From Embleya scabrispora DSM 41855 (GTDB lineage Bacteria > Actinomycetota > Actinomycetes > Streptomycetales > Streptomycetaceae): 38,492 bases of DNA. How positions within the stretch are numbered: the first letter of the stretch is position 1; each line of letters starts with the position of its first letter. The notes below the pieces were generated by a model. That model searched no databases, had not been told where the DNA came from, and worked only from the letters and a program-made list of their open reading frames with translations. Location of the stretch: NCBI RefSeq assembly GCF_000372745.1, contig NZ_KB889717.1:1-38492 (forward strand). The letters are read 5' to 3'. Of the stretch, positions 17,531 to 38,492 are shown piece after piece. The position numbers and the translations under genes were made by a program.

Positions 17531-17611
17531 TGCCCTGCCGGTGGAAGTGTTGCCGGCTCCCGTGCCGGTGTTCTCCGGCGTCGGGTGAGCGAAGCAGCCA
17601 GGGGAGTGGAC

Positions 17612-19882: not shown

Positions 19883-21217
19883 ATGAGCGACGGTGGAATG
19901 GACCTTCCCGGTGGACTCGGCGGCCTTCTGGGCGGGCTTCTCGGTGGGCGGGGCGGCAGCGGTGACCAGGGGCTGGTGCGGGTGGTACTGAGCATGCTGA
20001 CCAAGCAGGGCAGCTCCGGTGGGCTGGGCGCGCTGTTGCACAAGCTCCAGGCGGGCGGCCTGGGTGAGCACACCAAGTCCTGGGTGGAGACCGGTCGCAA
20101 TCAGCCGGTGAGCGGCAAGGAACTCACCGATGCACTCGGTGAGGACGAGATGGTCCGCCTCGCCGGCCAGGCCGGGATGACCAAGGAGGAGACCGCCGCG
20201 GCGCTCGCGGCGACGCTGCCGCGGGTGGTGGATGCGGTGACGCCCGAGGGCAAGGTGCCGGCCGCCGAACAAATCGACGCGCTGATCGACCCGACGGCGG
20301 CTCCGGTCCCGACCGCCCCTCCCGCGACCGCCCCGGGCGGGGCGAAGCAGGCGACTCGGGCCAAGGGCGAGGCGGCCCCCGCGCCCGAAGCCGCGCCCCC
20401 GTCCCCGCCGGCGTCCGACGCCGCCCCGAAGCCCGCCCCCGACGCCACCCGGGAGCCCGGCGCCCGCCCGATTCCCAAGCCCGGCGCCGGCCCGCACTCC
20501 GCCTCCGACACCGCCCGAAAGCCCGATGCGCGCCCTGCGCCCGGGTCCGGCGCCGTTCCGGAGCCCGATGCCCACCCGAAGCCCGGGCCCGGCGCTCACC
20601 CGAAGCCCGCGTCCGGCGCCGCCCCGGAGTCCGGCCACCCCCCGAAGCCCGGGCCCGATGCCCACCCGAAGCCCGAGCCCGGCGCCCACCCGAAGCCTGG
20701 GCCCGGCGCCGCCCCGGAGTCCGGCCACCGTCCGAAGCCCGCGTCCGATGCCCACCCGAAGCCTGGGCCCGATGCTCACCCGAAGCCCGCGTCCGGCGCC
20801 CACCCGAAGCCCGCGTCCGGCGCCCACCCGAAGCCCGCGTCCGGCGCCCACCCGAAGCCCGGGCCCGGCTCTCACCCGAAGCCCGCGTCCAGCGCCCACC
20901 CGAAGCCCGGGCCCGGCGCCCACCCGAAGCCCGGGCCCGATGCCGGCCCGGAGTCCGGCGCCACGCCGAAGCCCGCGTCCGGCGCTGCTCCGGAGCCCGA
21001 TGTCCACCCGAAGCCCGGCCCCCACAACGCCCCAAAGCCCAACGCCGCCCCGGCGTCCGCCCCCGGAGCCGCCCCAAAGCCCGGCGCGCGCCCGAAGCCC
21101 GGACCCGGCGCCCGCCCGAAGGCCGCCCCCGACGCCGACCCGAAGCCCACCCCCCGCCGTCACCCCGAGGCGACGCCGGAGGGCGAGTCCGAGGTCAAGC
21201 CCGATGAGTCGGCGTGA
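19883..21217 (+). CDS. YidB/DUF937-family protein with long HPKP-repeat tail
   Basis: A 444-aa protein. The N-terminal part (1 to about 135) is a YidB/DUF937-type domain: a glycine-rich GGLGGLLGGLLGG start, then VLSMLTKQGSSGGLGALLHKLQAGGLGEHTKSWV, NQPVSGKELTDALG and LPRVVDAVTPEGKVP. The rest (about 140-444) is Pro/Ala/Lys/Gly/His repeat, mostly octads such as HPKPASGA and HPKPGPGA coded by 24-bp units. YidB proteins are usually about 130-150 aa, so the tail is exceptional. It could form an extended wall-spanning or metal-binding segment, but no signal peptide is seen. A GGGAG site is seven bases upstream. The 3' end overlaps the convergent P450 gene by 23 bp. Confidence 0.75.
   Translation: MSDGGMDLPGGLGGLLGGLLGGRGGSGDQGLVRVVLSMLTKQGSSGGLGALLHKLQAGGLGEHTKSWVETGRNQPVSGKELTDALGEDEMVRLAGQAGMTKEETAAALAATLPRVVDAVTPEGKVPAAEQIDALIDPTAAPVPTAPPATAPGGAKQATRAKGEAAPAPEAAPPSPPASDAAPKPAPDATREPGARPIPKPGAGPHSASDTARKPDARPAPGSGAVPEPDAHPKPGPGAHPKPASGAAPESGHPPKPGPDAHPKPEPGAHPKPGPGAAPESGHRPKPASDAHPKPGPDAHPKPASGAHPKPASGAHPKPASGAHPKPGPGSHPKPASSAHPKPGPGAHPKPGPDAGPESGATPKPASGAAPEPDVHPKPGPHNAPKPNAAPASAPGAAPKPGARPKPGPGARPKAAPDADPKPTPRRHPEATPEGESEVKPDESA
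20573..21020 (+). repeat. 24-bp tandem repeat coding HPKPxxGx octads
   Basis: Units start with CACCCGAAGCCC and vary in the second half between GCGTCC and GGGCCC. Three consecutive units at 20777-20848 are identical (24 bp each). All spacings are multiples of three, so the coding frame is kept and the antisense frames stay open too. The left end of the giant palindrome arm, as seen in this window, falls exactly at the third identical unit (20825). Confidence 0.85.
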
Positions 21218-22496
21218 ACTCGCAGTCCATGTGTTTGATGCCGTTGATGAAGCTCGAACGCAGCCGCTGGGGCTCGCCGACCATGCGGATGTCCGGCAGT
21301 CGGCCCAGCAACTCCCGGAACAACAGGGTGATCTCGCGGCGAGCCAGGTGCGCGCCCAAGCAGAAGTGTGGGCCGCGTGCACCGAAGCCGACATGCGGGT
21401 TCGGGTCGCGGGTGATGTCGAAGCGCCGGGGGTCGGCGAACACCGCCTCGTCCCGGTTCGCCGACCAGTAGAACAGCAGCAGCTTGTCGCCGTCGCGCAC
21501 CGGCTTGCCGTTCAGGTCGGTGTCCCGGGTGGCGGTGCGCCGCATCCACACCACCGGGGACGCGAGCCGGACGATCTCCTCCACGGCGGTCGGTGCGTAC
21601 CGCTCGAAGTCCGAGAGCCAGAGCCCGCGTTGGTCCGGATTCTCGGTCAGCAGCCACAGACCGTGCGAGATGGCGTTGCGAGTGGTCTCGTTGCCCGCGG
21701 CCAGCAACAGGATGAAGAACGAGGCGAGTTCGTCCGTGGTCAGGCTCTCTCCGTCGATCTGCGCGTTCACCAGGGCCGAGGTGACGTCCTCGGTCGGCGT
21801 GCCGCGTCGGAATTCGGCCAAGTCCTTCATCAGTTCGGCGAGTTCGGCGCCTGCGGTGAGCAGTGCCTCGATGTGGCCGCCGCCCTCCTGGGGCACGTAC
21901 TCCGGGTCCGCGACGCCGAGGATCACATTCGAGCGGTCGAAGACGAAACGGTGTTCTTTCTCCGGTATGCCCATCATGTCGCAGATGACCCGGAGTGGGA
22001 GTCGGGCCGCGACGTCGGTGACGAAATCGCATGAGCCGCGCTCGGCCACCTCGTCGACGATGGTTTTGGCGGTGCGGTCCACGTCGTCCGAGAACTTCTT
22101 GATCATCCTGGGCGTGAACGTGCGGGCGACGATCCGGCGCAGCCGCTGGTGCCGGGGATCGTCCATTTCGATCATGGAACCGAAGAACTCACCGAATCCC
22201 GGCGGGAAATCGGGAATGTGGGTCGCGCCGCGACCCGAACAGAAGTCCTCGGGTCGGCGGCTGGCCTCGGCGACGTCCGCGTGCCGGGTCAGCGCCCAGA
22301 AGCCGGGGCCGGGCTCCAACGGGCTTTCCGGCTCCGGGTAGTACGGCATCGGCCATGTCTCGCGCAGGTAGGCGAAGCCCGCCTCGCGGGCGGCCGGCGG
22401 CCCCGACCAGAAGTCCAGGTCGGCGAGCGGGACCTGCGCCGGCCAGGTCCGAGGATTGGGGTCGGTGGTGCTCGGTCCAGCCGTCTCGGCCGTCAT
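21195..22496 (-). CDS. cytochrome P450 monooxygenase
   Basis: A 433-aa soluble bacterial P450. It shows the I-helix LLAAGNETTRN (Glu270-Thr271), the K-helix ExxR in VEEIVRLASPV, and the haem loop FGARGPHFCLGAHLARRE with the thiolate Cys379. The sequence style (MIEMDDPRHQRLRRIVARTFTP, FYWSANRDEAVF, VGFGARGPHFCLG) resembles actinobacterial CYP124/125/142-type enzymes that oxidise lipid or sterol side chains, but the substrate is an inference. The start is ATG 22496, with GGAG eight bases upstream. An SDR gene lies 79 bp upstream on the same strand, so the two are likely co-transcribed, facing a MarR regulator. The 3' end overlaps the YidB-like gene by 23 bp. No ferredoxin gene is adjacent. Confidence 0.92.
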   Translation of the reverse strand: MTAETAGPSTTDPNPRTWPAQVPLADLDFWSGPPAAREAGFAYLRETWPMPYYPEPESPLEPGPGFWALTRHADVAEASRRPEDFCSGRGATHIPDFPPGFGEFFGSMIEMDDPRHQRLRRIVARTFTPRMIKKFSDDVDRTAKTIVDEVAERGSCDFVTDVAARLPLRVICDMMGIPEKEHRFVFDRSNVILGVADPEYVPQEGGGHIEALLTAGAELAELMKDLAEFRRGTPTEDVTSALVNAQIDGESLTTDELASFFILLLAAGNETTRNAISHGLWLLTENPDQRGLWLSDFERYAPTAVEEIVRLASPVVWMRRTATRDTDLNGKPVRDGDKLLLFYWSANRDEAVFADPRRFDITRDPNPHVGFGARGPHFCLGAHLARREITLLFRELLGRLPDIRMVGEPQRLRSSFINGIKHMDCEFTPTHRA

Positions 22497-22575
22497 GCCG
22501 GTCACTCCGATCACGCGTTGTTACTCGCGGGTTCGGTATCAGTGCAGCACACATGCGTTCGCCGATCCAGGGCTC

Positions 22576-23337
22576 TCAGGTGGTGATCGCGCCGCCGTTG
22601 ACCTGGATGGTCTGGCCGGTGATCCACGCCGCTTCGTCGGAGGCGAGGAAGACGCAGGTCGCGCCCGCGTCCTCGGGGGTGCCGAGCCGGCCGACCGGGA
22701 TGTGCTTGGCCTGTTCGGCGGTGTGCGCGAGGTCGCGGCCGCTGGGACGGGGGTCCATCAGGCCCAGTGCGACGGTGTTCGCGGTCACGCCGTCGCGGGC
22801 GCTCTCCATCGCGAGGTGGCGCATGAACGCGATGGCGCCGCCCTTCGCGGCCCCGTACAGCGAGATGCCGAACGACTGGCCGCTGACGCCCGCGGCCGAC
22901 GCGATGGTGATCACTCGCCCGAAGCGGCGCGCGCACATCCCGTCCAGCACCGCCTTCGTGCAGGCCATCACGCCGAACAGGTTGACGTCGGCGAAGCGTT
23001 GCCAGTCCTCGGGCACGCTTTGGCGGAACTTGGTCGGGCGAAATCCCTCGGCGCCACCGTTGCCCGCGTTGTTGACCAGGATGTCGATCGGCGCGACGGT
23101 GCGTTCGAAGGTGCGTACGGCCACCAGCGCGGCCTGCGGGTCGGTCACGTCGAACGCGGCGGTGAACGCCCGGCCACCCGCCGCGCGGATCTCGGCGCAG
23201 GTGTGTTCGGCACGCTCGGGGTCGAGGTCGTTCACCGCGACGATCGCACCCTGCGCGGCGAGCAGGCGGGCGATGCCCGCGCCGACACCCCGGCCCGCGC
23301 CGGTGACCATTGCCGACCTGCCGTCGAGTGCGAACAC
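22576..23337 (-). CDS. short-chain dehydrogenase/reductase upstream of the P450
   Basis: A 253-aa classical SDR of the FabG-like type: TGAGRGVG (12-19), NNAG (89-92), Ser147, Tyr161 and Lys165 (YGAAKGG), with the C-terminal ITGQTIQVNGGA. The GTG at 23337 is preferred because it gives the standard SDR N-terminus VFALDGRSAMVTG and follows a GGGGGAC stretch; a longer frame adds only Arg-rich sequence. It is the first gene of an SDR-P450 unit that would oxidise a hydroxylated lipid or alcohol product. It diverges from the MarR gene across 213 bp holding a 20-bp palindrome. Confidence 0.9.
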   Translation of the reverse strand: MFALDGRSAMVTGAGRGVGAGIARLLAAQGAIVAVNDLDPERAEHTCAEIRAAGGRAFTAAFDVTDPQAALVAVRTFERTVAPIDILVNNAGNGGAEGFRPTKFRQSVPEDWQRFADVNLFGVMACTKAVLDGMCARRFGRVITIASAAGVSGQSFGISLYGAAKGGAIAFMRHLAMESARDGVTANTVALGLMDPRPSGRDLAHTAEQAKHIPVGRLGTPEDAGATCVFLASDEAAWITGQTIQVNGGAITT

Positions 23338-23502
23338 GCGGGTCCCCCGGGGTGATCGATGAGCTCGACGGCGGCATCGGCGCACGGCGTCGATCTTGAC
23401 GCGCGCAGCCAATCACCGGCCTCTACACGTGTCAATGCTGGACTCCATCAATTACCTTCTGTGGGTCGGGATGCACACCTAGACTGTGGAACGCCCGCCT
23501 CC

Positions 23503-23522
23503 GCCATACGAAACCGTATGGC
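23503..23522. promoter_or_regulatory. 20-bp palindrome GCCATACG-N4-CGTATGGC, candidate MarR operator
   Basis: Perfect 8-bp arms lie 28 bp before the MarR-type GTG start and 165 bp from the divergent SDR start. The length and placement are typical of MarR-family operators, which are often in the regulator's own divergent promoter region. Confidence 0.65.
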
Positions 23523-23550
23523 GTTGCTTCCCTTCCGGAGGACTCGTCCA

Positions 23551-24060
23551 GTGCCCCCGTCAGCCGAGTCGCCCACTCCCTCCTCGGAACGACACGAGTC
23601 GCGGCATCACGTCCAGACCGCGCTCGAACGCCTGATCCGACTCCAGCAGAGCCGTCGCGTGCACGGCGAACTCACCAGCGCCTCGCGCGCGCAGGTCTCG
23701 CAGCCGGCGGTGGTGTTGCTGACCCGGTTGCAGGCGGGCGGCGGCGGGCTGGCCATCGGCGATCTGGCCAAGCTCGCCCGGATGGACATGTCGCTGGTCA
23801 GCCGGGAGTTGCGCAAACTGGAGGCGGACGAACTGGTCACCCGGACCACCGACACGCGCGACGGTCGGATCACCCGGGTGGGACTGACTCCCAAGGGTCG
23901 AGGTGTGGTCCGGCGGCTGCGCCGGGTGCGCGACCGGCACTTCGAGGAGGCGCTGTCCGGTTGGACGGACGACGACCTCGCCACGCTCGGCACGTTGATG
24001 GGCCGCTTCGTCGACGACCTGTCCGCCGTCCGCTATCGCGAGGCCGACGAGCCGGGCTGA
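23551..24060 (+). CDS. MarR-family transcriptional regulator
   Basis: A 169-aa regulator. After a Ser/Pro-rich N-terminus, helices with VQTALERLIRLQQSRR lead to the winged helix-turn-helix: LAIGDLAKLARMDMSLVSRELRKLEADELVTR, then a wing with DTRDGRITRVGLTPKGRGVV. This is the standard MarR pattern. The GTG at 23551 is chosen for the GGAGGA site eight bases upstream. It is divergent from the SDR-P450 pair and likely controls it and itself through the palindrome at 23503-23522. The ligand is unknown. Confidence 0.88.
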   Translation: MPPSAESPTPSSERHESRHHVQTALERLIRLQQSRRVHGELTSASRAQVSQPAVVLLTRLQAGGGGLAIGDLAKLARMDMSLVSRELRKLEADELVTRTTDTRDGRITRVGLTPKGRGVVRRLRRVRDRHFEEALSGWTDDDLATLGTLMGRFVDDLSAVRYREADEPG

Positions 24061-24131
24061 TTCCGCGCCCGGGTCCCCCTTCGCCCCGCCGGGCGTCCCA
24101 CCTTCCCCATCCGCCCCCTTTGCACGGCCCG

Positions 24132-24156
24132 GCTGGACACGGTACGTGTGTCCAGC
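24132..24156. promoter_or_regulatory. 25-bp inverted repeat GCTGGACAC-N7-GTGTCCAGC
   Basis: Perfect 9-bp arms lie 71 bp after the MarR stop and 148 bp before the leader ORF of the enzyme I-like gene. The position and odd-length spacing fit an operator for a dimeric regulator; a terminator for the MarR gene is the alternative, but there is no T-run. Confidence 0.45.
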
Positions 24157-24304
24157 AGACTGTGTCGCGAGACCGGGTGGTTGCCTTGCGCCGGGTCGAA
24201 CCCGTGTCGTGCCGGCAACCGTTACCGGTCGCGGCACCCGCGCGCCCACCGGCGCGCACGCCGACGTGCGGCGGTTGGACGAGGTGGGAAGAGGGGGACG
24301 CACC

Positions 24305-24352
24305 GTGGGAGAGCTGCACTGGGCCGGCCACGACCGTGCCCGGGTCGCATGA
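24305..24352 (+). CDS. 15-codon leader ORF coupled to the enzyme I-like gene
   Basis: A GTG-started ORF coding VGELHWAGHDRARVA has its own ribosome site, GAGGGGG, about eight bases upstream. Its TGA overlaps the next gene's ATG as ATGA. The next gene has no ribosome site of its own, so its translation probably depends on this leader. It could also be the tail of a longer frame, but that has no recognisable domain. Confidence 0.5.
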   Translation: MGELHWAGHDRARVA

Positions 24353-25875
24353 GCGCGGTATTGCGCGGCACCGGGGCCGCACCCGGTTCCGCGGTCGGCC
24401 GGCTCGTGGTGGCCCGGATCGGGGCGGGCGGCCCGGTGACTCCGGCGGCGCCGGCCGACATTCCGGAGGCGCTGGACACCGTGGCCCGGCACATGGACGA
24501 CCTGGCCGGCGCGCTGCGCACCCGCGGGCGGTCGGCGGAGGCGGACATCGTCGAGTTCGCCGCCCTGATCGCGCGTGACCGCGAACTGCGCGACGGTGCC
24601 GCGCGACACCTCGCGACGGGCCTGGCGCCGGTCGACGCGCTGGCCGCGGCCGTACACGACTTCGCCGATCTGCTGGCCGGCTTCGACGACGAACTGATCG
24701 CCGAGCGTGCGGTGGACGTGCGTGACGTGGGCCGGCAGGCCGAGGCGCTGCTGTGCGGCGAGGACCCGACCGGCGGGCAACTCCCGGGCGGAGCACCGGC
24801 GGTGCTGGTCGGTGCCGAACTGGCGGCGATGGATCTGCTGCGCGGTCCGCGGCCGGCGGCGGCGGTTTCCGAGCGGGGCGGGACGACCGGGCATCTGGCC
24901 ATCGTGGCCCGGTCGTTGGGGATACCGCTGGTCCTGGGCATCCCGGTGGCGGCGCTGGCCGACCTGGCCGAGGAGCTGATCCTGGTGGACGGCGAGGCGG
25001 GCACGGTGGAGGCCAACGCGGGCGCGCGGGTGCGTACGATCCCGGCGCCTCGGCGGGTGCCCGGTGGCGGCGCGGGGCAGGCGATGACCCGGGACGGGCG
25101 GCGCATCCGGGTCAGGGCGAACGTGGCGACCGTCTCGGACGCGCTCGCGGCGGCCGAGGCGGGCTCCGAGGGGGTCGGTCTGTTGCGTACCGAACTGCCC
25201 TTCCTGACCGAGGAGTCGGACTGGCCGGACGAGGAGCGGCAAGTAGCCGTGCTGGCGCCGGTGTTGGCCGCCGTGCCGCCGGGGCCGGTCGTGGTGCGCA
25301 CCCTGGACTTCACCGGCGACAAACGACCGCCGTTCCTGCGCGACCGGCGCATCACACTGCCCGGATCGGACGCGCTGACCGCGCAGTTGCGCGGGATCAT
25401 GCGCGCGGCGGCCGAGACGGGGGTGGAGGTCGCGCTGTTGTTGCCGATGGTCGACCATCCCCGGCGGATCAAGCACGTCCGGGGACTGCTCGCCGCCGCG
25501 TGCGCGCAGTTGGGCCTGGCCCCGCCGCCGCTGGGCGCGATGGTGGAACTGCCCCAGGTACTCGACCGGGTGGACGACCTCGCCGAGCACGCCGACTTCC
25601 TGTCGCTGGGCACCAACGACCTGACCTCCCGGCTGCTCGGGTTGAGCCGGGACGACCCGCGGCTGACCCCCGCCTCGGCGGCCCACCCGCGCGTGTTGGA
25701 CGCCATCGCGCAGACCATCCGGGCCGGGCACGCGCGCGGTCGCGCGGTGTCGTTGTGTGGGGACGCGGCGGCGGATCCGGCGGTGCTGCCGCATCTGGTC
25801 CGGCTCGGCTGCGACGCGGTGTCGGTGGCGCCGACCGCGCTGTCGCGGGTGCGGGCTGCGGTGCGGGCGCACTGA
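24349..25875 (+). CDS. ptsI: PTS enzyme I-like phosphoenolpyruvate-protein phosphotransferase
   Basis: A 508-aa member of the PEP-utilising enzyme family. Enzyme I takes phosphate from PEP onto a histidine and passes it to HPr. The phospho-histidine is His182 in GGTTGHLAIVARSLGIP (family GGRTSHTAI). Arg280 in LLRTELPF and Cys470 in SLCGDAAADP match active-site residues. The PEP-binding barrel also shows MVELPQVL and SLGTNDL. The protein is about 50-60 residues shorter than typical enzyme I, mostly in the N-terminal HPr-binding part, and the His loop deviates (TGH for TSH). No HPr or EII gene is nearby, so a specialised or DhaM-type partner is possible. The start at 24349 overlaps the leader stop. 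Confidence 0.8.
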   Translation: MSAVLRGTGAAPGSAVGRLVVARIGAGGPVTPAAPADIPEALDTVARHMDDLAGALRTRGRSAEADIVEFAALIARDRELRDGAARHLATGLAPVDALAAAVHDFADLLAGFDDELIAERAVDVRDVGRQAEALLCGEDPTGGQLPGGAPAVLVGAELAAMDLLRGPRPAAAVSERGGTTGHLAIVARSLGIPLVLGIPVAALADLAEELILVDGEAGTVEANAGARVRTIPAPRRVPGGGAGQAMTRDGRRIRVRANVATVSDALAAAEAGSEGVGLLRTELPFLTEESDWPDEERQVAVLAPVLAAVPPGPVVVRTLDFTGDKRPPFLRDRRITLPGSDALTAQLRGIMRAAAETGVEVALLLPMVDHPRRIKHVRGLLAAACAQLGLAPPPLGAMVELPQVLDRVDDLAEHADFLSLGTNDLTSRLLGLSRDDPRLTPASAAHPRVLDAIAQTIRAGHARGRAVSLCGDAAADPAVLPHLVRLGCDAVSVAPTALSRVRAAVRAH

Positions 25876-26007
25876 CGCGCGCCGCCGGGAGCGGGATCGG
25901 GGCCGGTGTGGGCCGGTCGGCGTCCGAGAGCCGGGCGCGGTGTCCGGGGACCGAGATCAGCGGACAATTCGATGGGGTCGATCGGGGCCGGCTCGGATAA
26001 TGCGGAC

Positions 26008-26586
26008 ATGGGAAAGACGTACGCACATATCGACGGCCGCCTGCGCGAGTTCATCGAGGCCCAGCCGGTGTTCTTCGTGGCGAGCGCTCCACTGGCCGAG
26101 GACGGGCACGTCAACGTGTCGCCCAAGGGCCGCTCCGGCACGCTCGCCGTGCTGGACGATACGACGGTGGCCTACCTGGACTTCGGCGGCAGCCATGCCG
26201 AGACCATCGCGCACCTGCGGGAGAACGGCCGGATCACACTGATGTGGTGTGCGTTCGAGGGCCCGCCGAAGATCGTCCGGGTGCACGGCGTCGGCGAGGC
26301 GGTCTTCCGTGACGATCCGCGCTTCCCCGACCTGGTGGCCCGGTTCGGCGACGCGGACGCGGGCGGGCTGCGGGCGGTCGTGGTGGTGCGCGCGACGCTG
26401 ATCAGCGATACCTGCGGCTACGCGGTCCCGTTCATGGACTACCGCGAGGAGCGCACGCTGCACGACGAATTCATGTCTCGCAAGACCGACGCGGAGTTCG
26501 TCGAGTACACCGGCAGCAAGCCCTACAACGTGGCCAGCATCGACGGCCTCCCCGCCGTCCCGCTGCCTCTGCCCCTGCGCGGCTAG
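26008..26586 (+). CDS. pyridoxamine 5'-phosphate oxidase-family (split-barrel flavin) protein
   Basis: A 192-aa protein of the PNPOx-like FMN/F420-binding split-barrel superfamily. Characteristic are REFIEAQPVFFVASAP, HVNVSPKGRSGTLAVLDD, TVAYLDFGGSHAETIAHLRENGRITLM and KIVRVHGVGEAVF. Such proteins bind flavin, F420 or haem; the actual reaction is unknown. The ATG at 26008 has no ribosome site; GATAAT (25996-26001) lies six bases upstream, an excellent -10 box for a leaderless transcript. Earlier in-frame starts would run through this promoter. Confidence 0.83.
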   Translation: MGKTYAHIDGRLREFIEAQPVFFVASAPLAEDGHVNVSPKGRSGTLAVLDDTTVAYLDFGGSHAETIAHLRENGRITLMWCAFEGPPKIVRVHGVGEAVFRDDPRFPDLVARFGDADAGGLRAVVVVRATLISDTCGYAVPFMDYREERTLHDEFMSRKTDAEFVEYTGSKPYNVASIDGLPAVPLPLPLRG

Positions 26587-26726
26587 GTGTACTGCCCACA
26601 GAGGTTGGGCCACCGGCTGCGGACGCCGGTGCGGAGCCGGGGTCTGTGTCGCGTGACCGATCGACGGTTTGGCGGCTACCGTGCTACACAGAGTGCGGGT
26701 TCGTGCGACCGAGCCGGGGGGCGACG

Positions 26727-27194
26727 GTGACCGACGAGATCGAGACCGTGATCACGTGCCACTACCACCGCGCTTTCGGCCGCATCGTTCGCTACCGCCT
26801 CGAATCGGGACTGGGCACCGTGTTGGACCGTCGCGCGACCGGGGCGAGGAGCCCGCGCTGTGTCGGGCACTTCGGTGAGCTCTCCGGGATCCCGGTCGCG
26901 CTGTACCGGCACCACGGCGCTTCCTGGCTTCAGGTCGCCCGCCGGCGGATCCGGGTCGTGCCGTGCCTGGAACCGCATTGGCGGCGCGTCGACGATCACG
27001 GCCCGAATACTCCCCGGCGCCGGCTGCGGATCGACGCCAACGGGGTCGAGCTGTTCGACCTCTGCTACGAGATCGAGCCGTGGTGGTACGAGTTCGACTT
27101 CACGCCCCATGTCGAGGAGGAGGACTTCGACTACGGCCTGTTCGTCGCCGACATGCTGCGCTCGCCGAGTCGATGGGCGCCGCTGGGGGACTGA
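26727..27194 (+). CDS. uncharacterised protein (155 aa)
   Basis: I do not recognise a family. The GTG at 26727 is preferred: a G-rich site precedes it, and the frame upstream (from 26646) looks non-coding. The protein begins VTDEIETVITCHYHRAFGRIV, has an Arg-rich middle (ARRRIRVVPCLEPHWRR), and ends with an aromatic, acidic part (EIEPWWYEFDFTPHVEEEDFDYG). There is no signal peptide or membrane segment. The codon pattern supports a real gene. It ends 14 bp from the stop of the convergent next gene. Confidence 0.6.
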   Translation: MTDEIETVITCHYHRAFGRIVRYRLESGLGTVLDRRATGARSPRCVGHFGELSGIPVALYRHHGASWLQVARRRIRVVPCLEPHWRRVDDHGPNTPRRRLRIDANGVELFDLCYEIEPWWYEFDFTPHVEEEDFDYGLFVADMLRSPSRWAPLGD

Positions 27195-27202
27195 GCGGGC
27201 GG

Positions 27203-27217
27203 GCCGGCTCAGCCGGC
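27203..27217. terminator. small hairpin between convergent stops
   Basis: GCCGGC-TCA-GCCGGC forms a 6-bp stem at the junction of two convergent genes; the three-base loop is the stop codon of the minus-strand gene. It could weakly terminate both. There is no T-run. Confidence 0.35.
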
Positions 27218-30585: not shown

Positions 30586-30915
30586 TGGTCCTTCTCTTGG
30601 AACACGGTGCGATGGTGCGCGAGCGCCCGGTCGATCAGGGCCGGGGCCGAGCCGATCCAGGCGGCCGAATCGAAAACCGCCTCGTTCAACCGCCCCAGCA
30701 GATCACGAAGGTGTCGGCCGGTCCGCGCCGAGGTCCGGAATGCCTCGCCGAGCAGACCCCGCGCCGCGTCCTTGCCGAGCTCGCCGGCCCACCCGCGGAC
30801 CGGCCGCTCGGACACGAACCGCCCGTCCGGTCGCGCCCGGGTGCACGTGCTCGGCGGCGGCCGAGTCGGGGGCCGGACCGGCGCCGGCAGTCCCGCGTCG
30901 ACCGCATCGGCTGAA
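30582..30915 (-). pseudogene. pcaB: pcaB C-terminal remnant, mirror copy
   Basis: Reverse-complement copy of 28402-28735, with the same truncation and the same ATGA overlap with pcaD. Confidence 0.6.
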
Positions 30916-31085
30916 TCAGCGTCGAACAGCAAGGAAAACGGTCTCCTGCTCACCCTGGATGTGCACGTCGAAGCGGCAGGAGCCCGATTCCTCCCGCACG
31001 GCGATCAGCGTCTCACGCCGAGTCGACGGAACCACTGCGAAGAGCGCTCCGCGTGGCGGTCGCCCTCGGAGAAGTACCCGCGCGT
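30916..31085 (-). pseudogene. pcaG: pcaG C-terminal remnant, mirror copy
   Basis: Reverse-complement copy of 28232-28401. It carries the same frameshift between the YFSEGD and VVPSTRRETL segments, so the decay pre-dates any real duplication. Confidence 0.6.
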
Positions 31086-31207
31086 GACCGCCCGACGCCG
31101 CACGGCCGTGCCGGGCCGTCCGGCCGCACCCCGGCGAGCGCGCCGCCGCAGTGCCCGATGTGCGGGCGTACGGCGTCCACGAGAGGGACGTCCCCGAGCC
31201 CGCTCAT
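31086..31207 (-). pseudogene. pcaF: pcaF N-terminal remnant, mirror copy
   Basis: Reverse-complement copy of 28110-28231, including the intact AAGGAGG ribosome site before the ATG. Confidence 0.55.
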
Positions 31208-31306
31208 GTGGTTCCTCCTTGTGGCGGCGGCGATGTCCTCCCGCACACGGTGCCCGGTCGCCTCCCGTCGCGGGTGCCGCTCGCATTGCGCTCGGCGGCA
31301 ACCGGT

Positions 31307-31325
31307 GATCCGGAGCGCTCGGATC
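31307..31325. promoter_or_regulatory. inverted repeat GATCCG-N7-CGGATC, mirror copy
   Basis: Mirror of 27992-28010, in the 223-bp gap 31208-31430, which holds no gene. Confidence 0.3.
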
Positions 31326-31430
31326 GGACCGGGATTGTTTGCCCGACCGCGACCACGGGCCCGGTCGCACCGTTAGCCTCTGATCGCCCTACCGCAACCG
31401 CGGTGGTGGCTCCACGGGGAGGCGACGCAC

Positions 31431-32108
31431 ATGGCGGTCCGCAAGGCAACGATGCAACGGCAGATCGCGGAGGCGGTGACCGCGGCCAATCCGGGCGACC
31501 AGCCACTCGCCACGATGTTCGTCGTCCGCGGCCCGAACCCGATGTTCTTCGCGTTGTTCGGCGGGATCGGCGCATTGATCGGGGCGTCGATGTCCGACTA
31601 CTACTTCTTCACGGTCACCCAGCAGGGAGTGATGTTCCACAAGGCGAGCGCACTCTCCAGCAGGCCCAAGGAGGTCGCCTACGCGCTGACCCACGCCCAG
31701 GCCGGCGCGTTGCTCTCCGATCTGAAGATCAACGCGACCTGGAGCCGGATGCACTTCTGGTTCCCCGGCAAGGACCGCCCAGCCAAGCTCAACTTCCCCC
31801 GCCCGTGGCGCGCCGAAGGCGAATGGATCTTCCGCTTCCTCATCGACGCGCACGCCGCCTCCGGCGCCCAACAGCAGCCCTACGCCGGCCAGGTGCCCAA
31901 CCAGTACGCACCGCAGCAGAGCCAGTACCCGGGCCAGGCTTCACAGCCGCCGCAGGTCCCGAACCAGTACCCGGGTCAGCCCTCGCAGCCGCCGCAACCC
32001 CCGAGCCAATACCCGGTCGGCCCCCCGCAGCCGCCCACCGGCTACCCGCCCCAGACCCCGAACCCGTACACGCAATACCCCCAACAGGGCGGTCCCCACG
32101 CCGGCTGA
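31431..32108 (+). CDS. uncharacterised membrane protein with Pro/Gln/Tyr-rich tail, mirror copy
   Basis: The 225-aa product is identical to that of 27209-27886. It has the same GGGGAGG ribosome site, single hydrophobic segment near residues 39-54, and NQYPGQ-type repeat tail. Confidence 0.62.
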   Translation: MAVRKATMQRQIAEAVTAANPGDQPLATMFVVRGPNPMFFALFGGIGALIGASMSDYYFFTVTQQGVMFHKASALSSRPKEVAYALTHAQAGALLSDLKINATWSRMHFWFPGKDRPAKLNFPRPWRAEGEWIFRFLIDAHAASGAQQQPYAGQVPNQYAPQQSQYPGQASQPPQVPNQYPGQPSQPPQPPSQYPVGPPQPPTGYPPQTPNPYTQYPQQGGPHAG

Positions 32109-32122
32109 GCCGGCCCGCCCGC

Positions 32123-32590
32123 TCAGTCCCCCAGCGGCGCCCATCGACTCGGCGAGCGCAGCATGTCGGCGACGAACAGGCCGTAGTCGAAGTCCTCCTC
32201 CTCGACATGGGGCGTGAAGTCGAACTCGTACCACCACGGCTCGATCTCGTAGCAGAGGTCGAACAGCTCGACCCCGTTGGCGTCGATCCGCAGCCGGCGC
32301 CGGGGAGTATTCGGGCCGTGATCGTCGACGCGCCGCCAATGCGGTTCCAGGCACGGCACGACCCGGATCCGCCGGCGGGCGACCTGAAGCCAGGAAGCGC
32401 CGTGGTGCCGGTACAGCGCGACCGGGATCCCGGAGAGCTCACCGAAGTGCCCGACACAGCGCGGGCTCCTCGCCCCGGTCGCGCGACGGTCCAACACGGT
32501 GCCCAGTCCCGATTCGAGGCGGTAGCGAACGATGCGGCCGAAAGCGCGGTGGTAGTGGCACGTGATCACGGTCTCGATCTCGTCGGTCAC
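32123..32590 (-). CDS. uncharacterised protein (155 aa), mirror copy
   Basis: Identical to the product of 26727-27194, with a GTG start and an acidic aromatic C-terminus. It converges on the preceding gene with a 14-bp gap containing the GCCGGC hairpin (32100-32114). Confidence 0.52.
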   Translation of the reverse strand: MTDEIETVITCHYHRAFGRIVRYRLESGLGTVLDRRATGARSPRCVGHFGELSGIPVALYRHHGASWLQVARRRIRVVPCLEPHWRRVDDHGPNTPRRRLRIDANGVELFDLCYEIEPWWYEFDFTPHVEEEDFDYGLFVADMLRSPSRWAPLGD

Positions 32591-32730
32591 CGTCGCCCCC
32601 CGGCTCGGTCGCACGAACCCGCACTCTGTGTAGCACGGTAGCCGCCAAACCGTCGATCGGTCACGCGACACAGACCCCGGCTCCGCACCGGCGTCCGCAG
32701 CCGGTGGCCCAACCTCTGTGGGCAGTACAC

Positions 32731-33309
32731 CTAGCCGCGCAGGGGCAGAGGCAGCGGGACGGCGGGGAGGCCGTCGATGCTGGCCACGTTGTAGGGCTTG
32801 CTGCCGGTGTACTCGACGAACTCCGCGTCGGTCTTGCGAGACATGAATTCGTCGTGCAGCGTGCGCTCCTCGCGGTAGTCCATGAACGGGACCGCGTAGC
32901 CGCAGGTATCGCTGATCAGCGTCGCGCGCACCACCACGACCGCCCGCAGCCCGCCCGCGTCCGCGTCGCCGAACCGGGCCACCAGGTCGGGGAAGCGCGG
33001 ATCGTCACGGAAGACCGCCTCGCCGACGCCGTGCACCCGGACGATCTTCGGCGGGCCCTCGAACGCACACCACATCAGTGTGATCCGGCCGTTCTCCCGC
33101 AGGTGCGCGATGGTCTCGGCATGGCTGCCGCCGAAGTCCAGGTAGGCCACCGTCGTATCGTCCAGCACGGCGAGCGTGCCGGAGCGGCCCTTGGGCGACA
33201 CGTTGACGTGCCCGTCCTCGGCCAGTGGAGCGCTCGCCACGAAGAACACCGGCTGGGCCTCGATGAACTCGCGCAGGCGGCCGTCGATATGTGCGTACGT
33301 CTTTCCCAT
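32731..33309 (-). CDS. PNPOx-family split-barrel flavin protein, mirror copy
   Basis: Identical to the product of 26008-26586. The GATAAT -10 box before the leaderless ATG is also mirrored (33316-33321). Confidence 0.75.
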   Translation of the reverse strand: MGKTYAHIDGRLREFIEAQPVFFVASAPLAEDGHVNVSPKGRSGTLAVLDDTTVAYLDFGGSHAETIAHLRENGRITLMWCAFEGPPKIVRVHGVGEAVFRDDPRFPDLVARFGDADAGGLRAVVVVRATLISDTCGYAVPFMDYREERTLHDEFMSRKTDAEFVEYTGSKPYNVASIDGLPAVPLPLPLRG

Positions 33310-33441
33310 GTCCGCATTATCCGAGCCGGCCCCGATCGACCCCATCGAATTGTCCGCTGATCTCGGTCCCCGGACACCGCGCCCGGCTCTCGGACGCCGA
33401 CCGGCCCACACCGGCCCCGATCCCGCTCCCGGCGGCGCGCG

Positions 33442-34968
33442 TCAGTGCGCCCGCACCGCAGCCCGCACCCGCGACAGCGCGGTCGGCGCCACCGACACCG
33501 CGTCGCAGCCGAGCCGGACCAGATGCGGCAGCACCGCCGGATCCGCCGCCGCGTCCCCACACAACGACACCGCGCGACCGCGCGCGTGCCCGGCCCGGAT
33601 GGTCTGCGCGATGGCGTCCAACACGCGCGGGTGGGCCGCCGAGGCGGGGGTCAGCCGCGGGTCGTCCCGGCTCAACCCGAGCAGCCGGGAGGTCAGGTCG
33701 TTGGTGCCCAGCGACAGGAAGTCGGCGTGCTCGGCGAGGTCGTCCACCCGGTCGAGTACCTGGGGCAGTTCCACCATCGCGCCCAGCGGCGGCGGGGCCA
33801 GGCCCAACTGCGCGCACGCGGCGGCGAGCAGTCCCCGGACGTGCTTGATCCGCCGGGGATGGTCGACCATCGGCAACAACAGCGCGACCTCCACCCCCGT
33901 CTCGGCCGCCGCGCGCATGATCCCGCGCAACTGCGCGGTCAGCGCGTCCGATCCGGGCAGTGTGATGCGCCGGTCGCGCAGGAACGGCGGTCGTTTGTCG
34001 CCGGTGAAGTCCAGGGTGCGCACCACGACCGGCCCCGGCGGCACGGCGGCCAACACCGGCGCCAGCACGGCTACTTGCCGCTCCTCGTCCGGCCAGTCCG
34101 ACTCCTCGGTCAGGAAGGGCAGTTCGGTACGCAACAGACCGACCCCCTCGGAGCCCGCCTCGGCCGCCGCGAGCGCGTCCGAGACGGTCGCCACGTTCGC
34201 CCTGACCCGGATGCGCCGCCCGTCCCGGGTCATCGCCTGCCCCGCGCCGCCACCGGGCACCCGCCGAGGCGCCGGGATCGTACGCACCCGCGCGCCCGCG
34301 TTGGCCTCCACCGTGCCCGCCTCGCCGTCCACCAGGATCAGCTCCTCGGCCAGGTCGGCCAGCGCCGCCACCGGGATGCCCAGGACCAGCGGTATCCCCA
34401 ACGACCGGGCCACGATGGCCAGATGCCCGGTCGTCCCGCCCCGCTCGGAAACCGCCGCCGCCGGCCGCGGACCGCGCAGCAGATCCATCGCCGCCAGTTC
34501 GGCACCGACCAGCACCGCCGGTGCTCCGCCCGGGAGTTGCCCGCCGGTCGGGTCCTCGCCGCACAGCAGCGCCTCGGCCTGCCGGCCCACGTCACGCACG
34601 TCCACCGCACGCTCGGCGATCAGTTCGTCGTCGAAGCCGGCCAGCAGATCGGCGAAGTCGTGTACGGCCGCGGCCAGCGCGTCGACCGGCGCCAGGCCCG
34701 TCGCGAGGTGTCGCGCGGCACCGTCGCGCAGTTCGCGGTCACGCGCGATCAGGGCGGCGAACTCGACGATGTCCGCCTCCGCCGACCGCCCGCGGGTGCG
34801 CAGCGCGCCGGCCAGGTCGTCCATGTGCCGGGCCACGGTGTCCAGCGCCTCCGGAATGTCGGCCGGCGCCGCCGGAGTCACCGGGCCGCCCGCCCCGATC
34901 CGGGCCACCACGAGCCGGCCGACCGCGGAACCGGGTGCGGCCCCGGTGCCGCGCAATACCGCGCTCAT
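33442..34968 (-). CDS. ptsI: PTS enzyme I-like phosphotransferase, mirror copy
   Basis: The 508-aa product is identical to that of 24349-25875, with His182, Arg280 and Cys470 conserved. It is translationally coupled to the mirrored leader ORF. Confidence 0.72.
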   Translation of the reverse strand: MSAVLRGTGAAPGSAVGRLVVARIGAGGPVTPAAPADIPEALDTVARHMDDLAGALRTRGRSAEADIVEFAALIARDRELRDGAARHLATGLAPVDALAAAVHDFADLLAGFDDELIAERAVDVRDVGRQAEALLCGEDPTGGQLPGGAPAVLVGAELAAMDLLRGPRPAAAVSERGGTTGHLAIVARSLGIPLVLGIPVAALADLAEELILVDGEAGTVEANAGARVRTIPAPRRVPGGGAGQAMTRDGRRIRVRANVATVSDALAAAEAGSEGVGLLRTELPFLTEESDWPDEERQVAVLAPVLAAVPPGPVVVRTLDFTGDKRPPFLRDRRITLPGSDALTAQLRGIMRAAAETGVEVALLLPMVDHPRRIKHVRGLLAAACAQLGLAPPPLGAMVELPQVLDRVDDLAEHADFLSLGTNDLTSRLLGLSRDDPRLTPASAAHPRVLDAIAQTIRAGHARGRAVSLCGDAAADPAVLPHLVRLGCDAVSVAPTALSRVRAAVRAH

Positions 34969-35012
34969 GCGACCCGGGCACGGTCGTGGCCGGCCCAGTG
35001 CAGCTCTCCCAC
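34965..35012 (-). CDS. 15-codon leader ORF, mirror copy
   Basis: Mirror of 24305-24352, with the same GAGGGGG site and ATGA overlap with the enzyme I-like start. Confidence 0.42.
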   Translation of the reverse strand: MGELHWAGHDRARVA

Positions 35013-35160
35013 GGTGCGTCCCCCTCTTCCCACCTCGTCCAACCGCCGCACGTCGGCGTGCGCGCCGGTGGGCGCGCGGGTGCCGCGACCGGTAACGGTT
35101 GCCGGCACGACACGGGTTCGACCCGGCGCAAGGCAACCACCCGGTCTCGCGACACAGTCT

Positions 35161-35185
35161 GCTGGACACACGTACCGTGTCCAGC
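35161..35185. promoter_or_regulatory. GCTGGACAC-N7-GTGTCCAGC inverted repeat, mirror copy
   Basis: Mirror of 24132-24156, between the MarR-type and enzyme I-like copies. Confidence 0.4.
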
Positions 35186-35256
35186 CGGGCCGTGCAAAGG
35201 GGGCGGATGGGGAAGGTGGGACGCCCGGCGGGGCGAAGGGGGACCCGGGCGCGGAA

Positions 35257-35766
35257 TCAGCCCGGCTCGTCGGCCTCGCGATAGCGGACGGCGGACAGGT
35301 CGTCGACGAAGCGGCCCATCAACGTGCCGAGCGTGGCGAGGTCGTCGTCCGTCCAACCGGACAGCGCCTCCTCGAAGTGCCGGTCGCGCACCCGGCGCAG
35401 CCGCCGGACCACACCTCGACCCTTGGGAGTCAGTCCCACCCGGGTGATCCGACCGTCGCGCGTGTCGGTGGTCCGGGTGACCAGTTCGTCCGCCTCCAGT
35501 TTGCGCAACTCCCGGCTGACCAGCGACATGTCCATCCGGGCGAGCTTGGCCAGATCGCCGATGGCCAGCCCGCCGCCGCCCGCCTGCAACCGGGTCAGCA
35601 ACACCACCGCCGGCTGCGAGACCTGCGCGCGCGAGGCGCTGGTGAGTTCGCCGTGCACGCGACGGCTCTGCTGGAGTCGGATCAGGCGTTCGAGCGCGGT
35701 CTGGACGTGATGCCGCGACTCGTGTCGTTCCGAGGAGGGAGTGGGCGACTCGGCTGACGGGGGCAC
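35257..35766 (-). CDS. MarR-family regulator, mirror copy
   Basis: The 169-aa product is identical to that of 23551-24060. The GTG start, GGAGGA site and divergent arrangement with the SDR-P450 pair are all preserved. Confidence 0.8.
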   Translation of the reverse strand: MPPSAESPTPSSERHESRHHVQTALERLIRLQQSRRVHGELTSASRAQVSQPAVVLLTRLQAGGGGLAIGDLAKLARMDMSLVSRELRKLEADELVTRTTDTRDGRITRVGLTPKGRGVVRRLRRVRDRHFEEALSGWTDDDLATLGTLMGRFVDDLSAVRYREADEPG

Positions 35767-35794
35767 TGGACGAGTCCTCCGGAAGGGAAGCAAC

Positions 35795-35814
35795 GCCATA
35801 CGGTTTCGTATGGC
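35795..35814. promoter_or_regulatory. MarR operator palindrome, mirror copy
   Basis: Mirror of 23503-23522, the 8-bp arms GCCATACG/CGTATGGC. Confidence 0.58.
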
Positions 35815-35979
35815 GGAGGCGGGCGTTCCACAGTCTAGGTGTGCATCCCGACCCACAGAAGGTAATTGATGGAGTCCAGCATTGACACGTGTAGAGGCCG
35901 GTGATTGGCTGCGCGCGTCAAGATCGACGCCGTGCGCCGATGCCGCCGTCGAGCTCATCGATCACCCCGGGGGACCCGC

Positions 35980-36741
35980 GTGTTCGCACTCGACGGCAGG
36001 TCGGCAATGGTCACCGGCGCGGGCCGGGGTGTCGGCGCGGGCATCGCCCGCCTGCTCGCCGCGCAGGGTGCGATCGTCGCGGTGAACGACCTCGACCCCG
36101 AGCGTGCCGAACACACCTGCGCCGAGATCCGCGCGGCGGGTGGCCGGGCGTTCACCGCCGCGTTCGACGTGACCGACCCGCAGGCCGCGCTGGTGGCCGT
36201 ACGCACCTTCGAACGCACCGTCGCGCCGATCGACATCCTGGTCAACAACGCGGGCAACGGTGGCGCCGAGGGATTTCGCCCGACCAAGTTCCGCCAAAGC
36301 GTGCCCGAGGACTGGCAACGCTTCGCCGACGTCAACCTGTTCGGCGTGATGGCCTGCACGAAGGCGGTGCTGGACGGGATGTGCGCGCGCCGCTTCGGGC
36401 GAGTGATCACCATCGCGTCGGCCGCGGGCGTCAGCGGCCAGTCGTTCGGCATCTCGCTGTACGGGGCCGCGAAGGGCGGCGCCATCGCGTTCATGCGCCA
36501 CCTCGCGATGGAGAGCGCCCGCGACGGCGTGACCGCGAACACCGTCGCACTGGGCCTGATGGACCCCCGTCCCAGCGGCCGCGACCTCGCGCACACCGCC
36601 GAACAGGCCAAGCACATCCCGGTCGGCCGGCTCGGCACCCCCGAGGACGCGGGCGCGACCTGCGTCTTCCTCGCCTCCGACGAAGCGGCGTGGATCACCG
36701 GCCAGACCATCCAGGTCAACGGCGGCGCGATCACCACCTGA
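35980..36741 (+). CDS. short-chain dehydrogenase/reductase, mirror copy
   Basis: The 253-aa product is identical to that of 22576-23337 (TGAGRGVG, NNAG, Ser147, Tyr161, Lys165). GTG start. The P450 copy follows 79 bp downstream. Confidence 0.82.
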   Translation: MFALDGRSAMVTGAGRGVGAGIARLLAAQGAIVAVNDLDPERAEHTCAEIRAAGGRAFTAAFDVTDPQAALVAVRTFERTVAPIDILVNNAGNGGAEGFRPTKFRQSVPEDWQRFADVNLFGVMACTKAVLDGMCARRFGRVITIASAAGVSGQSFGISLYGAAKGGAIAFMRHLAMESARDGVTANTVALGLMDPRPSGRDLAHTAEQAKHIPVGRLGTPEDAGATCVFLASDEAAWITGQTIQVNGGAITT

Positions 36742-36820
36742 GAGCCCTGGATCGGCGAACGCATGTGTGCTGCACTGATACCGAACCCGCGAGTAACAAC
36801 GCGTGATCGGAGTGACCGGC

Positions 36821-38122
36821 ATGACGGCCGAGACGGCTGGACCGAGCACCACCGACCCCAATCCTCGGACCTGGCCGGCGCAGGTCCCGCTCGCCGACCT
36901 GGACTTCTGGTCGGGGCCGCCGGCCGCCCGCGAGGCGGGCTTCGCCTACCTGCGCGAGACATGGCCGATGCCGTACTACCCGGAGCCGGAAAGCCCGTTG
37001 GAGCCCGGCCCCGGCTTCTGGGCGCTGACCCGGCACGCGGACGTCGCCGAGGCCAGCCGCCGACCCGAGGACTTCTGTTCGGGTCGCGGCGCGACCCACA
37101 TTCCCGATTTCCCGCCGGGATTCGGTGAGTTCTTCGGTTCCATGATCGAAATGGACGATCCCCGGCACCAGCGGCTGCGCCGGATCGTCGCCCGCACGTT
37201 CACGCCCAGGATGATCAAGAAGTTCTCGGACGACGTGGACCGCACCGCCAAAACCATCGTCGACGAGGTGGCCGAGCGCGGCTCATGCGATTTCGTCACC
37301 GACGTCGCGGCCCGACTCCCACTCCGGGTCATCTGCGACATGATGGGCATACCGGAGAAAGAACACCGTTTCGTCTTCGACCGCTCGAATGTGATCCTCG
37401 GCGTCGCGGACCCGGAGTACGTGCCCCAGGAGGGCGGCGGCCACATCGAGGCACTGCTCACCGCAGGCGCCGAACTCGCCGAACTGATGAAGGACTTGGC
37501 CGAATTCCGACGCGGCACGCCGACCGAGGACGTCACCTCGGCCCTGGTGAACGCGCAGATCGACGGAGAGAGCCTGACCACGGACGAACTCGCCTCGTTC
37601 TTCATCCTGTTGCTGGCCGCGGGCAACGAGACCACTCGCAACGCCATCTCGCACGGTCTGTGGCTGCTGACCGAGAATCCGGACCAACGCGGGCTCTGGC
37701 TCTCGGACTTCGAGCGGTACGCACCGACCGCCGTGGAGGAGATCGTCCGGCTCGCGTCCCCGGTGGTGTGGATGCGGCGCACCGCCACCCGGGACACCGA
37801 CCTGAACGGCAAGCCGGTGCGCGACGGCGACAAGCTGCTGCTGTTCTACTGGTCGGCGAACCGGGACGAGGCGGTGTTCGCCGACCCCCGGCGCTTCGAC
37901 ATCACCCGCGACCCGAACCCGCATGTCGGCTTCGGTGCACGCGGCCCACACTTCTGCTTGGGCGCGCACCTGGCTCGCCGCGAGATCACCCTGTTGTTCC
38001 GGGAGTTGCTGGGCCGACTGCCGGACATCCGCATGGTCGGCGAGCCCCAGCGGCTGCGTTCGAGCTTCATCAACGGCATCAAACACATGGACTGCGAGTT
38101 CACGCCGACTCATCGGGCTTGA
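36821..38122 (+). CDS. cytochrome P450, mirror copy
   Basis: The 433-aa product is identical to that of 21195-22496, with Glu270-Thr271 and the haem ligand Cys379. Its end overlaps the truncated YidB-like copy by 23 bp. Confidence 0.85.
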   Translation: MTAETAGPSTTDPNPRTWPAQVPLADLDFWSGPPAAREAGFAYLRETWPMPYYPEPESPLEPGPGFWALTRHADVAEASRRPEDFCSGRGATHIPDFPPGFGEFFGSMIEMDDPRHQRLRRIVARTFTPRMIKKFSDDVDRTAKTIVDEVAERGSCDFVTDVAARLPLRVICDMMGIPEKEHRFVFDRSNVILGVADPEYVPQEGGGHIEALLTAGAELAELMKDLAEFRRGTPTEDVTSALVNAQIDGESLTTDELASFFILLLAAGNETTRNAISHGLWLLTENPDQRGLWLSDFERYAPTAVEEIVRLASPVVWMRRTATRDTDLNGKPVRDGDKLLLFYWSANRDEAVFADPRRFDITRDPNPHVGFGARGPHFCLGAHLARREITLLFRELLGRLPDIRMVGEPQRLRSSFINGIKHMDCEFTPTHRA

Positions 38123-38492
38123 CCTCGGACTCGCCCTCCGGCGTCGCCTCGGGGTGACGGCGGGGGGTGGGCTTCGGGTCGGCGTCGGGGGCGGCCTTCG
38201 GGCGGGCGCCGGGTCCGGGCTTCGGGCGCGCGCCGGGCTTTGGGGCGGCTCCGGGGGCGGACGCCGGGGCGGCGTTGGGCTTTGGGGCGTTGTGGGGGCC
38301 GGGCTTCGGGTGGACATCGGGCTCCGGAGCAGCGCCGGACGCGGGCTTCGGCGTGGCGCCGGACTCCGGGCCGGCATCGGGCCCGGGCTTCGGGTGGGCG
38401 CCGGGCCCGGGCTTCGGGTGGGCGCTGGACGCGGGCTTCGGGTGAGAGCCGGGCCCGGGCTTCGGGTGGGCGCCGGACGCGGGCTTCGGGTG
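38100..38492 (-). CDS. YidB-like protein, C-terminal HPKP tail only (cut by window end)
   Basis: The last 130 codons plus stop of the gene seen whole at 19883-21217. The YidB/DUF937 domain is not included because the window stops first, exactly at a 24-bp unit boundary. Whether the full gene exists in a second copy cannot be seen. Confidence 0.6.
   Translation of the reverse strand, partial: HPKPASGAHPKPGPGSHPKPASSAHPKPGPGAHPKPGPDAGPESGATPKPASGAAPEPDVHPKPGPHNAPKPNAAPASAPGAAPKPGARPKPGPGARPKAAPDADPKPTPRRHPEATPEGESEVKPDESA

What the first reader, a model, noticed from the sequence alone, without database searches (positions are those of the whole stretch)
20825..38492. A 17.7-kb perfect palindrome with no spacer
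Bases 29659-38492 are the exact reverse complement of 20825-29658 around an axis between 29658 and 29659. All paired genes, operators and pseudogene lesions are identical. Spacer-free palindromes of this size are normally unstable in bacteria, and the absence of any divergence argues for a very recent event or an artefact. Possibilities: (a) assembly fold-back at a hairpin or from chimeric reads; (b) a real inverted duplication; (c) fusion of two sister chromosome ends; (d) a hairpin-closed linear end. The axis has none of the multi-palindrome structure of known Streptomyces telomeres, and no telomere-type helicase gene is near. I rate (a) most likely.
Basis: partly seen in the sequence, partly recalled or inferred. 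Interest (0 to 1): 0.85.

Follow-up and report, generated by a model that had tools for sequence, protein, structure and literature searches.

The report
Assembly fold-back at a natural palindrome
The giant mirror-image sequence is almost certainly an assembly mistake: the assembler turned round at a short natural hairpin sequence and copied 8.8 kb backwards, so no unusual chromosome structure is indicated.

Summary
The palindrome is in the sequence exactly as described: axis 29658|29659, two 8,834-nt arms, 100% identity, no spacer. It runs to the contig end, so no outer flank was observed. It is very probably an assembly fold-back. (1) The axis is the exact centre of a short spacer-free perfect palindrome present at the same place in the 3 other congeneric (Embleya) genomes held; there it is 34, 34 and 48 bp long and is followed by different sequence. 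(2) The G000 counterpart of that sequence lies at the end of another contig, C135, which stops inside the palindrome arm, 12 nt short of the inferred axis. (3) The second arm stops inside the only exact direct repeat of at least 30 nt in window 1-29658; a de Bruijn simulation with k=29-41 puts this end at 20822-20834, observed 20825. The site is interior to a 7.0-Mb contig in one relative, so it is not a chromosome end there. The likely true order is C135 end, 40-bp palindrome, window 29658 down to 1. The short palindrome looks like a two-way transcription terminator. No reads were available, so a minority real inverted duplication is not strictly excluded.

The parts
20825..29658 (+). Original arm (single copy inferred); aligns, with gaps, collinearly to congeners G001 and G002
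29659..38492 (-). Mirror copy of 20825-29658, very probably not present in the genome (assembly fold-back); ends at the contig end
29639..29678 (.). Natural spacer-free perfect palindrome, inferred 40 bp in this genome; centre = fold-back axis; counterpart of 34-, 34- and 48-bp palindromes in G001, G002, G003
20777..20861 (+). The only exact direct repeat of 30 nt or more in 1-29658 (61 nt; copies 20777-20837 and 20801-20861), inside a 24-bp tandem array; the mirror arm stops inside it
28732..29508 (+). pcaD-like gene (name recalled; Pfam gives alpha/beta hydrolase), intact, 258 aa; followed in congeners by pcaC- and iclR-like genes and then the palindrome
29509..29658 (+). Apparent remnants of the pcaC/iclR region; 29615-29658 aligns to the iclR-side flank of the palindrome in G001 and G002
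1..20824 (+). Left part of the contig, outside the palindrome

Best explanation
The 17.7-kb palindrome is an assembly artefact. In the real genome the window sequence reaches 29658, passes through a natural spacer-free palindrome of about 40 bp (inferred), and continues into the reverse complement of contig C135. Because this palindrome equals its own reverse complement and is about as long as the assembler's word length, the graph offers two exits: the true neighbour, or back along the same arm on the other strand. The assembler took the second exit, rewrote the arm backwards for 8,834 nt, and stopped where the first repeated word made the path ambiguous (the 61-nt repeat in the 24-bp array). 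C135 was left ending in the palindrome. Shown: exact symmetry, the conserved natural palindrome, the C135 end, the repeat at the stopping point. Inferred: the 40-bp length, the word-length mechanism, and whether fold-back reads from library hairpins also contributed. The short palindrome itself lies between convergent genes and probably acts as a bidirectional transcription terminator.
For: (axis, arms); the axis coincides with the centre of the palindrome GGGGACTGTCACCCAC|GTGGGTGACAGTCCCC, present once each in G001 and G002; with up to 3 mismatches it is found in 3 of 31 genomes searched (G000, G001, G002). G003 has instead a 48-bp palindrome at the homologous place with the same core and different, still complementary arms; the last 44 nt before the axis align to the iclR-side flank of that palindrome in G001 and G002 (not in G003); the gene on the other side in the 3 congeners has one match in G000, at C135:59532-60161; C135 ends at 60235 with GGGCGGGG, the same 8 nt that precede the last 12 nt of the window arm; 20825 lies inside the only exact direct repeat of 30 nt or more in 1-29658; the simulated arm unitig ends outward at 20822-20834 for k=29-41 (20825 at k=38) and inward inside the palindrome for every k from 21 to 41, and runs through the palindrome for k of 42 and more; the site is interior in G002 (7,005,287-base contig).
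Against: C135 stops 12 nt before the inferred axis, not some way past it as the simple graph model would give. A 50-bp perfect palindrome in contig C153 of the same assembly was assembled without fold-back, so such a palindrome is not sufficient. k=38 was fitted after seeing the end, even k is unusual (recalled), and k=21-28 would put the end at 20913-20966. Only about the last 1.7 kb of C135 is collinear with G002; further in, matches are rearranged. No other fold-back was seen in the sampled starts of 60 contigs. No reads or coverage could be examined. No SbcD or SbcC match above the curated cut-off was found in G000, which would make a real palindrome somewhat less implausible.
Confidence: 0.95

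Rival explanations
1. [quoted passage not shown] coli lacking SbcCD and RecA.
For: The axis sits exactly on a natural palindrome, which is what this mechanism predicts. Inverted chromosome duplications at 246- and 85-bp interrupted palindromes are reported in E. coli (passages of PMC3315005). SbcD and SbcC profiles do not pass their cut-offs in G000.
Against: The sequence distal to the palindrome is still in the assembly and ends at the palindrome (C135). The mirror arm stops in a 61-nt repeat that matters to a graph, not to a chromosome. No divergence at all and no outer flank. The E. coli cases needed loss of SbcCD and RecA and longer palindromes.
Confidence: 0.03
2. A sub-version of the artefact (its odds overlap those of the best explanation): fold-back reads made during library preparation by self-priming at the hairpin, rather than graph ambiguity alone, led the assembler back along the arm.
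For: The single strand forms a hairpin of -24.7 kcal/mol as DNA. Foldback reads are a known artefact that can tangle assembly graphs (passages of PMC12870357). C135 and C156 behave differently on the two sides of the palindrome.
Against: Graph ambiguity explains the fold-back and the end point without it. The cited rates are for long reads, whereas this assembly looks short-read (isolated Ns and one N run; inference).
Confidence: 0.25
3. A hairpin-closed or fused chromosome end (telomere) of a linear Embleya replicon.
For: Embleya australiensis has a linear chromosome and a 4.2-Mb linear replicon, with terminal inverted repeats of 21.2 kb on the chromosome and near-identical ones on the 4.2-Mb replicon (section 16 of PMC13152386).
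Against: The same site is interior in the 3 congeners held: 2.87 Mb into a 7.0-Mb contig, 341 kb into a 655-kb contig, and 13 kb into a 52-kb contig. Sequence continues on both sides. The arm is an ordinary pca-locus region.
Confidence: 0.01

Closest known systems
Palindromic (inverted chimeric) artefacts in reads and assemblies (Pacasus, PMC6218980: listing and start of abstract seen; foldback reads, PMC12870357: passages seen)
   Same: Inverted copy of a stretch joined to itself; can mislead assembly
   Different: Those papers concern amplified or long-read data; here the axis is a specific natural palindrome and the data look short-read
Palindrome-stimulated inverted chromosome duplication in E. 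coli (PMC3315005: passages seen)
   Same: Large inverted duplication centred on a pre-existing palindrome
   Different: [quoted passage not shown] here the distal sequence is retained on another contig
Large inverted repeats at the Lactobacillus delbrueckii ssp. bulgaricus terminus (PMC5345009: passages seen)
   Same: Very large, nearly identical inverted repeats, proposed to start by fold-back synthesis at a short inverted repeat
   Different: 1-8.8 kb unique centres and, in two strains, two-fold depth support; here no spacer and no depth data
Streptomyces intrinsic terminators (PMC12207403: passages seen)
   Same: Long, very stable hairpins with little U-tract near gene ends, as for the natural 34-48 bp palindromes here
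   Different: No transcript-end data examined for this site; function inferred from position and folding only

Membership tests
Assembly fold-back artefact | Mirror copy is exact and has no distinct outer flank | tested here: met
   8,834 of 8,834 identical; the palindrome ends at the contig end
Assembly fold-back artefact | True continuation of the locus exists elsewhere in the assembly and ends at the axis | tested here: met
   C135 carries it and ends in the palindrome arm, 12 nt short of the inferred axis
Assembly fold-back artefact | Breakpoints coincide with graph ambiguities | tested here: met
   Axis at a natural palindrome, end in the only exact direct repeat of 30 nt or more; explanation found after seeing the end point
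Assembly fold-back artefact | Single read depth over the arm and reads joining 29658 to C135 | not testable with these tools
   No reads available
Palindrome-stimulated inverted chromosome duplication | Axis at a pre-existing palindrome | tested here: met
Palindrome-stimulated inverted chromosome duplication | Distal side lost or displaced from the junction | tested here: not met
   The distal side is present and ends at the junction; a mixed population cannot be excluded
Palindrome-stimulated inverted chromosome duplication | Permissive background (no SbcCD) | tested here: inconclusive
   SbcD: partial match of 57.2 bits in G000, cut-off 77.65 (over cut-off in 1 of 4 genus genomes, G003, and in 8 of 14 controls); SbcC: below cut-off in 4 of 4, but over it in only 1 of 14 controls; RecA not searched
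Linear-replicon telomere or hairpin end | Site is terminal | tested here: not met
   Interior in 3 of 3 other congeners held
Bidirectional intrinsic terminator (the short palindrome) | Stable hairpin between convergent genes | tested here: met
   RNA folds of -37.4 to -55.5 kcal/mol over 4 folds; hypothetical gene and iclR-like gene converge on it in G002 and G003
Bidirectional intrinsic terminator (the short palindrome) | Transcripts end there | not testable with these tools
   No transcript data

The most novel reading that the evidence does not exclude
A true, very recent inverted duplication nucleated by a natural 40-bp terminator palindrome, carried by part of the sequenced culture while other cells keep the normal junction to C135. 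It would show that a short natural palindrome can seed a giant palindrome in a wild actinomycete.
Probability: 0.03. Interest if true: 0.6.

Novelty: not a real feature. Interest (0 to 1): 0.08.

Why it matters
It removes a false giant palindrome and a false duplication of about 8.8 kb of genes from this assembly, and it suggests how two contigs (C156 and C135) join. It also suggests a cheap check for such claims: look for a short conserved palindrome at the axis in relatives, and ask whether the outer end of the mirror arm falls on a repeat.

Tried and rejected
Telomere or hairpin end: rejected because the site is interior in three congeners. Mobile or dispersed palindromic element: the 32-bp core occurs once per genome in G000, G001 and G002 and not in the other 28 of 31 genomes searched, up to 3 mismatches (G003's diverged version is beyond 3 mismatches). 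Structured RNA at the axis: the only Rfam hits at gathering score in the window are a tRNA and an msiK motif, far from the axis. Other fold-backs in the assembly as support: none found. One search scanned 62 stretches (1,144,534 bases): up to the first 20 kb of 60 contigs, 18 of them whole, plus one stretch each of C135 and C136; 128 of 190 contigs, C156 included, were not in that scan, and a fold-back further in would be missed. It did show a dispersed inverted repeat of about 133 nt in L082 and one of 53 nt in L092, neither a fold-back. pcaC/iclR of G000 elsewhere: the longest hits are 235 nt at 70% (C136) and 276 nt at 68% (C101), with short pieces besides, taken as paralogues. Literature: five searches gave general parallels; none was aimed at this locus, so I make no claim about what is in print on it. 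The source assembly was not identified; by elimination from the list in PMC13152386 (passages) it may be the E. scabrispora type-strain assembly, which is inference. In one search alignments of 80 nt or less were dropped.

Full report
Observation. The palindrome is exact: 29659-38492 is the reverse complement of 20825-29658 over 8,834 nt, with the axis between 29658 and 29659 and no spacer. The window is the complete contig C156 of an 11.39-Mb, 190-contig genome, so the palindrome stops only because the contig stops. No distinct right flank exists.

Setting. The closest genomes are Embleya. A genus search reached four genomes, the own one included. Of the stretch compared (about 4.5-29.5 kb of the window in G002, from 7.5 kb in G001), the window is collinear with both, with several unaligned intervals (among them about 18.7-19.8, 20.3-21.2 and 26.6-27.3 kb) and deletions at the pca locus (alignments of 80 nt or less dropped).

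The axis. In G001 and G002 the 44 nt before the axis align about 1.1 kb beyond pcaD. There they lead into a perfect spacer-free palindrome with the core GGGGACTGTCACCCAC|GTGGGTGACAGTCCCC, arms 17 nt, and then into different sequence. The window axis is the exact centre of this palindrome. G003 has a 48-bp perfect palindrome in the homologous place, with the same core and changed but complementary arms. The 32-bp core occurs once per genome in G000, G001 and G002 and not in the other 28 of 31 genomes searched, allowing 3 mismatches. In the five 20-kb stretches of relatives scanned, the only perfect palindromes with arms of 11 nt or more were these (one each in L025, L026, L027, none in L028, L029).

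The missing neighbour. In the relatives the far side of the palindrome carries a hypothetical gene (202 aa in G002). Its only match in G000 is on contig C135, 59532-60161; DNA similarity to G002 covers C135:58542-60168 at 74% identity. C135 is 60,235 bases long and ends GACGGGGCGGGG. The last 8 nt, GGGCGGGG, are those that precede ACTGTCACCCAC in the window arm. Adding those 12 nt, conserved in G001 and G002, gives a 40-bp perfect palindrome flanked by window sequence on one side and C135 on the other. This length is inferred: the 12 nt are not in C135.

The outer end. The mirror arm ends at the image of 20825. In 1-29658 the only exact direct repeat of 30 nt or more is a 61-nt repeat with copies at 20777-20837 and 20801-20861, inside a 24-bp tandem array. 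In a de Bruijn simulation on the inferred single-copy order, both strands counted, the arm's outer end falls at 20822-20834 for k from 29 to 41 and at 20825 for k=38; for k from 21 to 28 it falls at 20913-20966. On the inner side the unitig ends in the palindrome for k up to 41 and runs through it from k=42. The repeat explanation was found after seeing the end point and k is fitted, so this is a consistency check and not an independent prediction. A chromosome or a long molecule would have no reason to stop at a 61-nt repeat.

Results against. C135 ends 12 nt short of the inferred axis; the simple graph would carry it past the axis. Further in, C135 is rearranged relative to G002; only about its last 1.7 kb is collinear. 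A 50-bp palindrome in contig C153 did not cause a fold-back. No second fold-back was seen in the sampled starts of 60 contigs. The SbcD profile gives only a partial match below its cut-off in G000, as in G001 and G002, while G003 has one above it (controls over the cut-off in 8 of 14). SbcC is below cut-off in all four, though that model passes in only 1 of 14 control genomes. Weak SbcCD would favour a real palindrome slightly. No read data were available.

Telomere. Embleya australiensis has linear replicons; its chromosome has 21.2-kb terminal inverted repeats (section 16 of PMC13152386 read). The site here is at 2.87 Mb of a 7.0-Mb contig in G002 and interior in the contigs of G001 and G003, so it is not terminal there.

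Real inverted duplication. Passages of PMC3315005 describe palindrome-centred inverted chromosome duplications in E. coli without SbcCD and RecA, and passages of PMC5345009 describe large inverted repeats with unique centres in Lactobacillus delbrueckii, two of them supported by two-fold depth. The axis position would fit such an event, but retention of the distal side on C135 and the end in a 61-nt repeat do not.

The short palindrome. In G002 and G003 it lies between an iclR-like gene (downstream of pcaD- and pcaC-like genes) and the convergent hypothetical gene; in G002 the iclR-like frame ends inside the palindrome (the names pcaC, pcaB and iclR are recalled similarity, and Pfam confirms only an alpha/beta hydrolase for the pcaD-like gene). 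As RNA it folds at -37.4 to -55.5 kcal/mol, 5.6 to 8.3 standard deviations below shuffles, over four folds from G001, G002 (both strands) and G003. Long, stable hairpins with weak U-tracts are reported for Streptomyces terminators (passages of PMC12207403). A two-way terminator is the most likely role; this is inference.

Verdict. Assembly fold-back, 0.95.

Noticed in passing
window 28004-29658: The pca locus is decayed relative to G002: about 2.3 kb missing where the blocks 28004-28221 and 28215-28391 meet (7-nt overlap), further internal gaps around 28391-28488 in the pcaB-like gene, and only apparent remnants of the pcaC/iclR region, while pcaD is intact. No paired pcaH/pcaG-type hits like those of the three congeners were found in G000, which has two single PF00775 hits. 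Real decay or local misassembly was not resolved.
   Followed up: partly
L105:8461-8510 (contig C153): A 50-bp perfect spacer-free palindrome; with six others of 24-30 bp in 1.14 Mb sampled, such palindromes recur in this genome.
   Followed up: partly
L092:1-53 (contig C140): The contig begins with about 53 nt that recur inverted near 8,392-8,444, containing a hairpin-like CCTCTTTCTC...GAGAAAGAGG motif.
   Followed up: no
L107:17158-19132 (contig C155): A run of 1,975 N; one to four isolated Ns in 12 other sampled contigs, suggesting a scaffolded short-read assembly. Runs of N may also be stretches withheld by the operators.
   Followed up: no
window 1181-1238 and 2569-2643, minus strand: An msiK RNA motif and a tRNA-Thr(TGT) gene.
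   Followed up: no
window 20526-22034: Open frame of 502 aa through the 24-bp tandem array, without a Pfam match at E 0.001.
   Followed up: no
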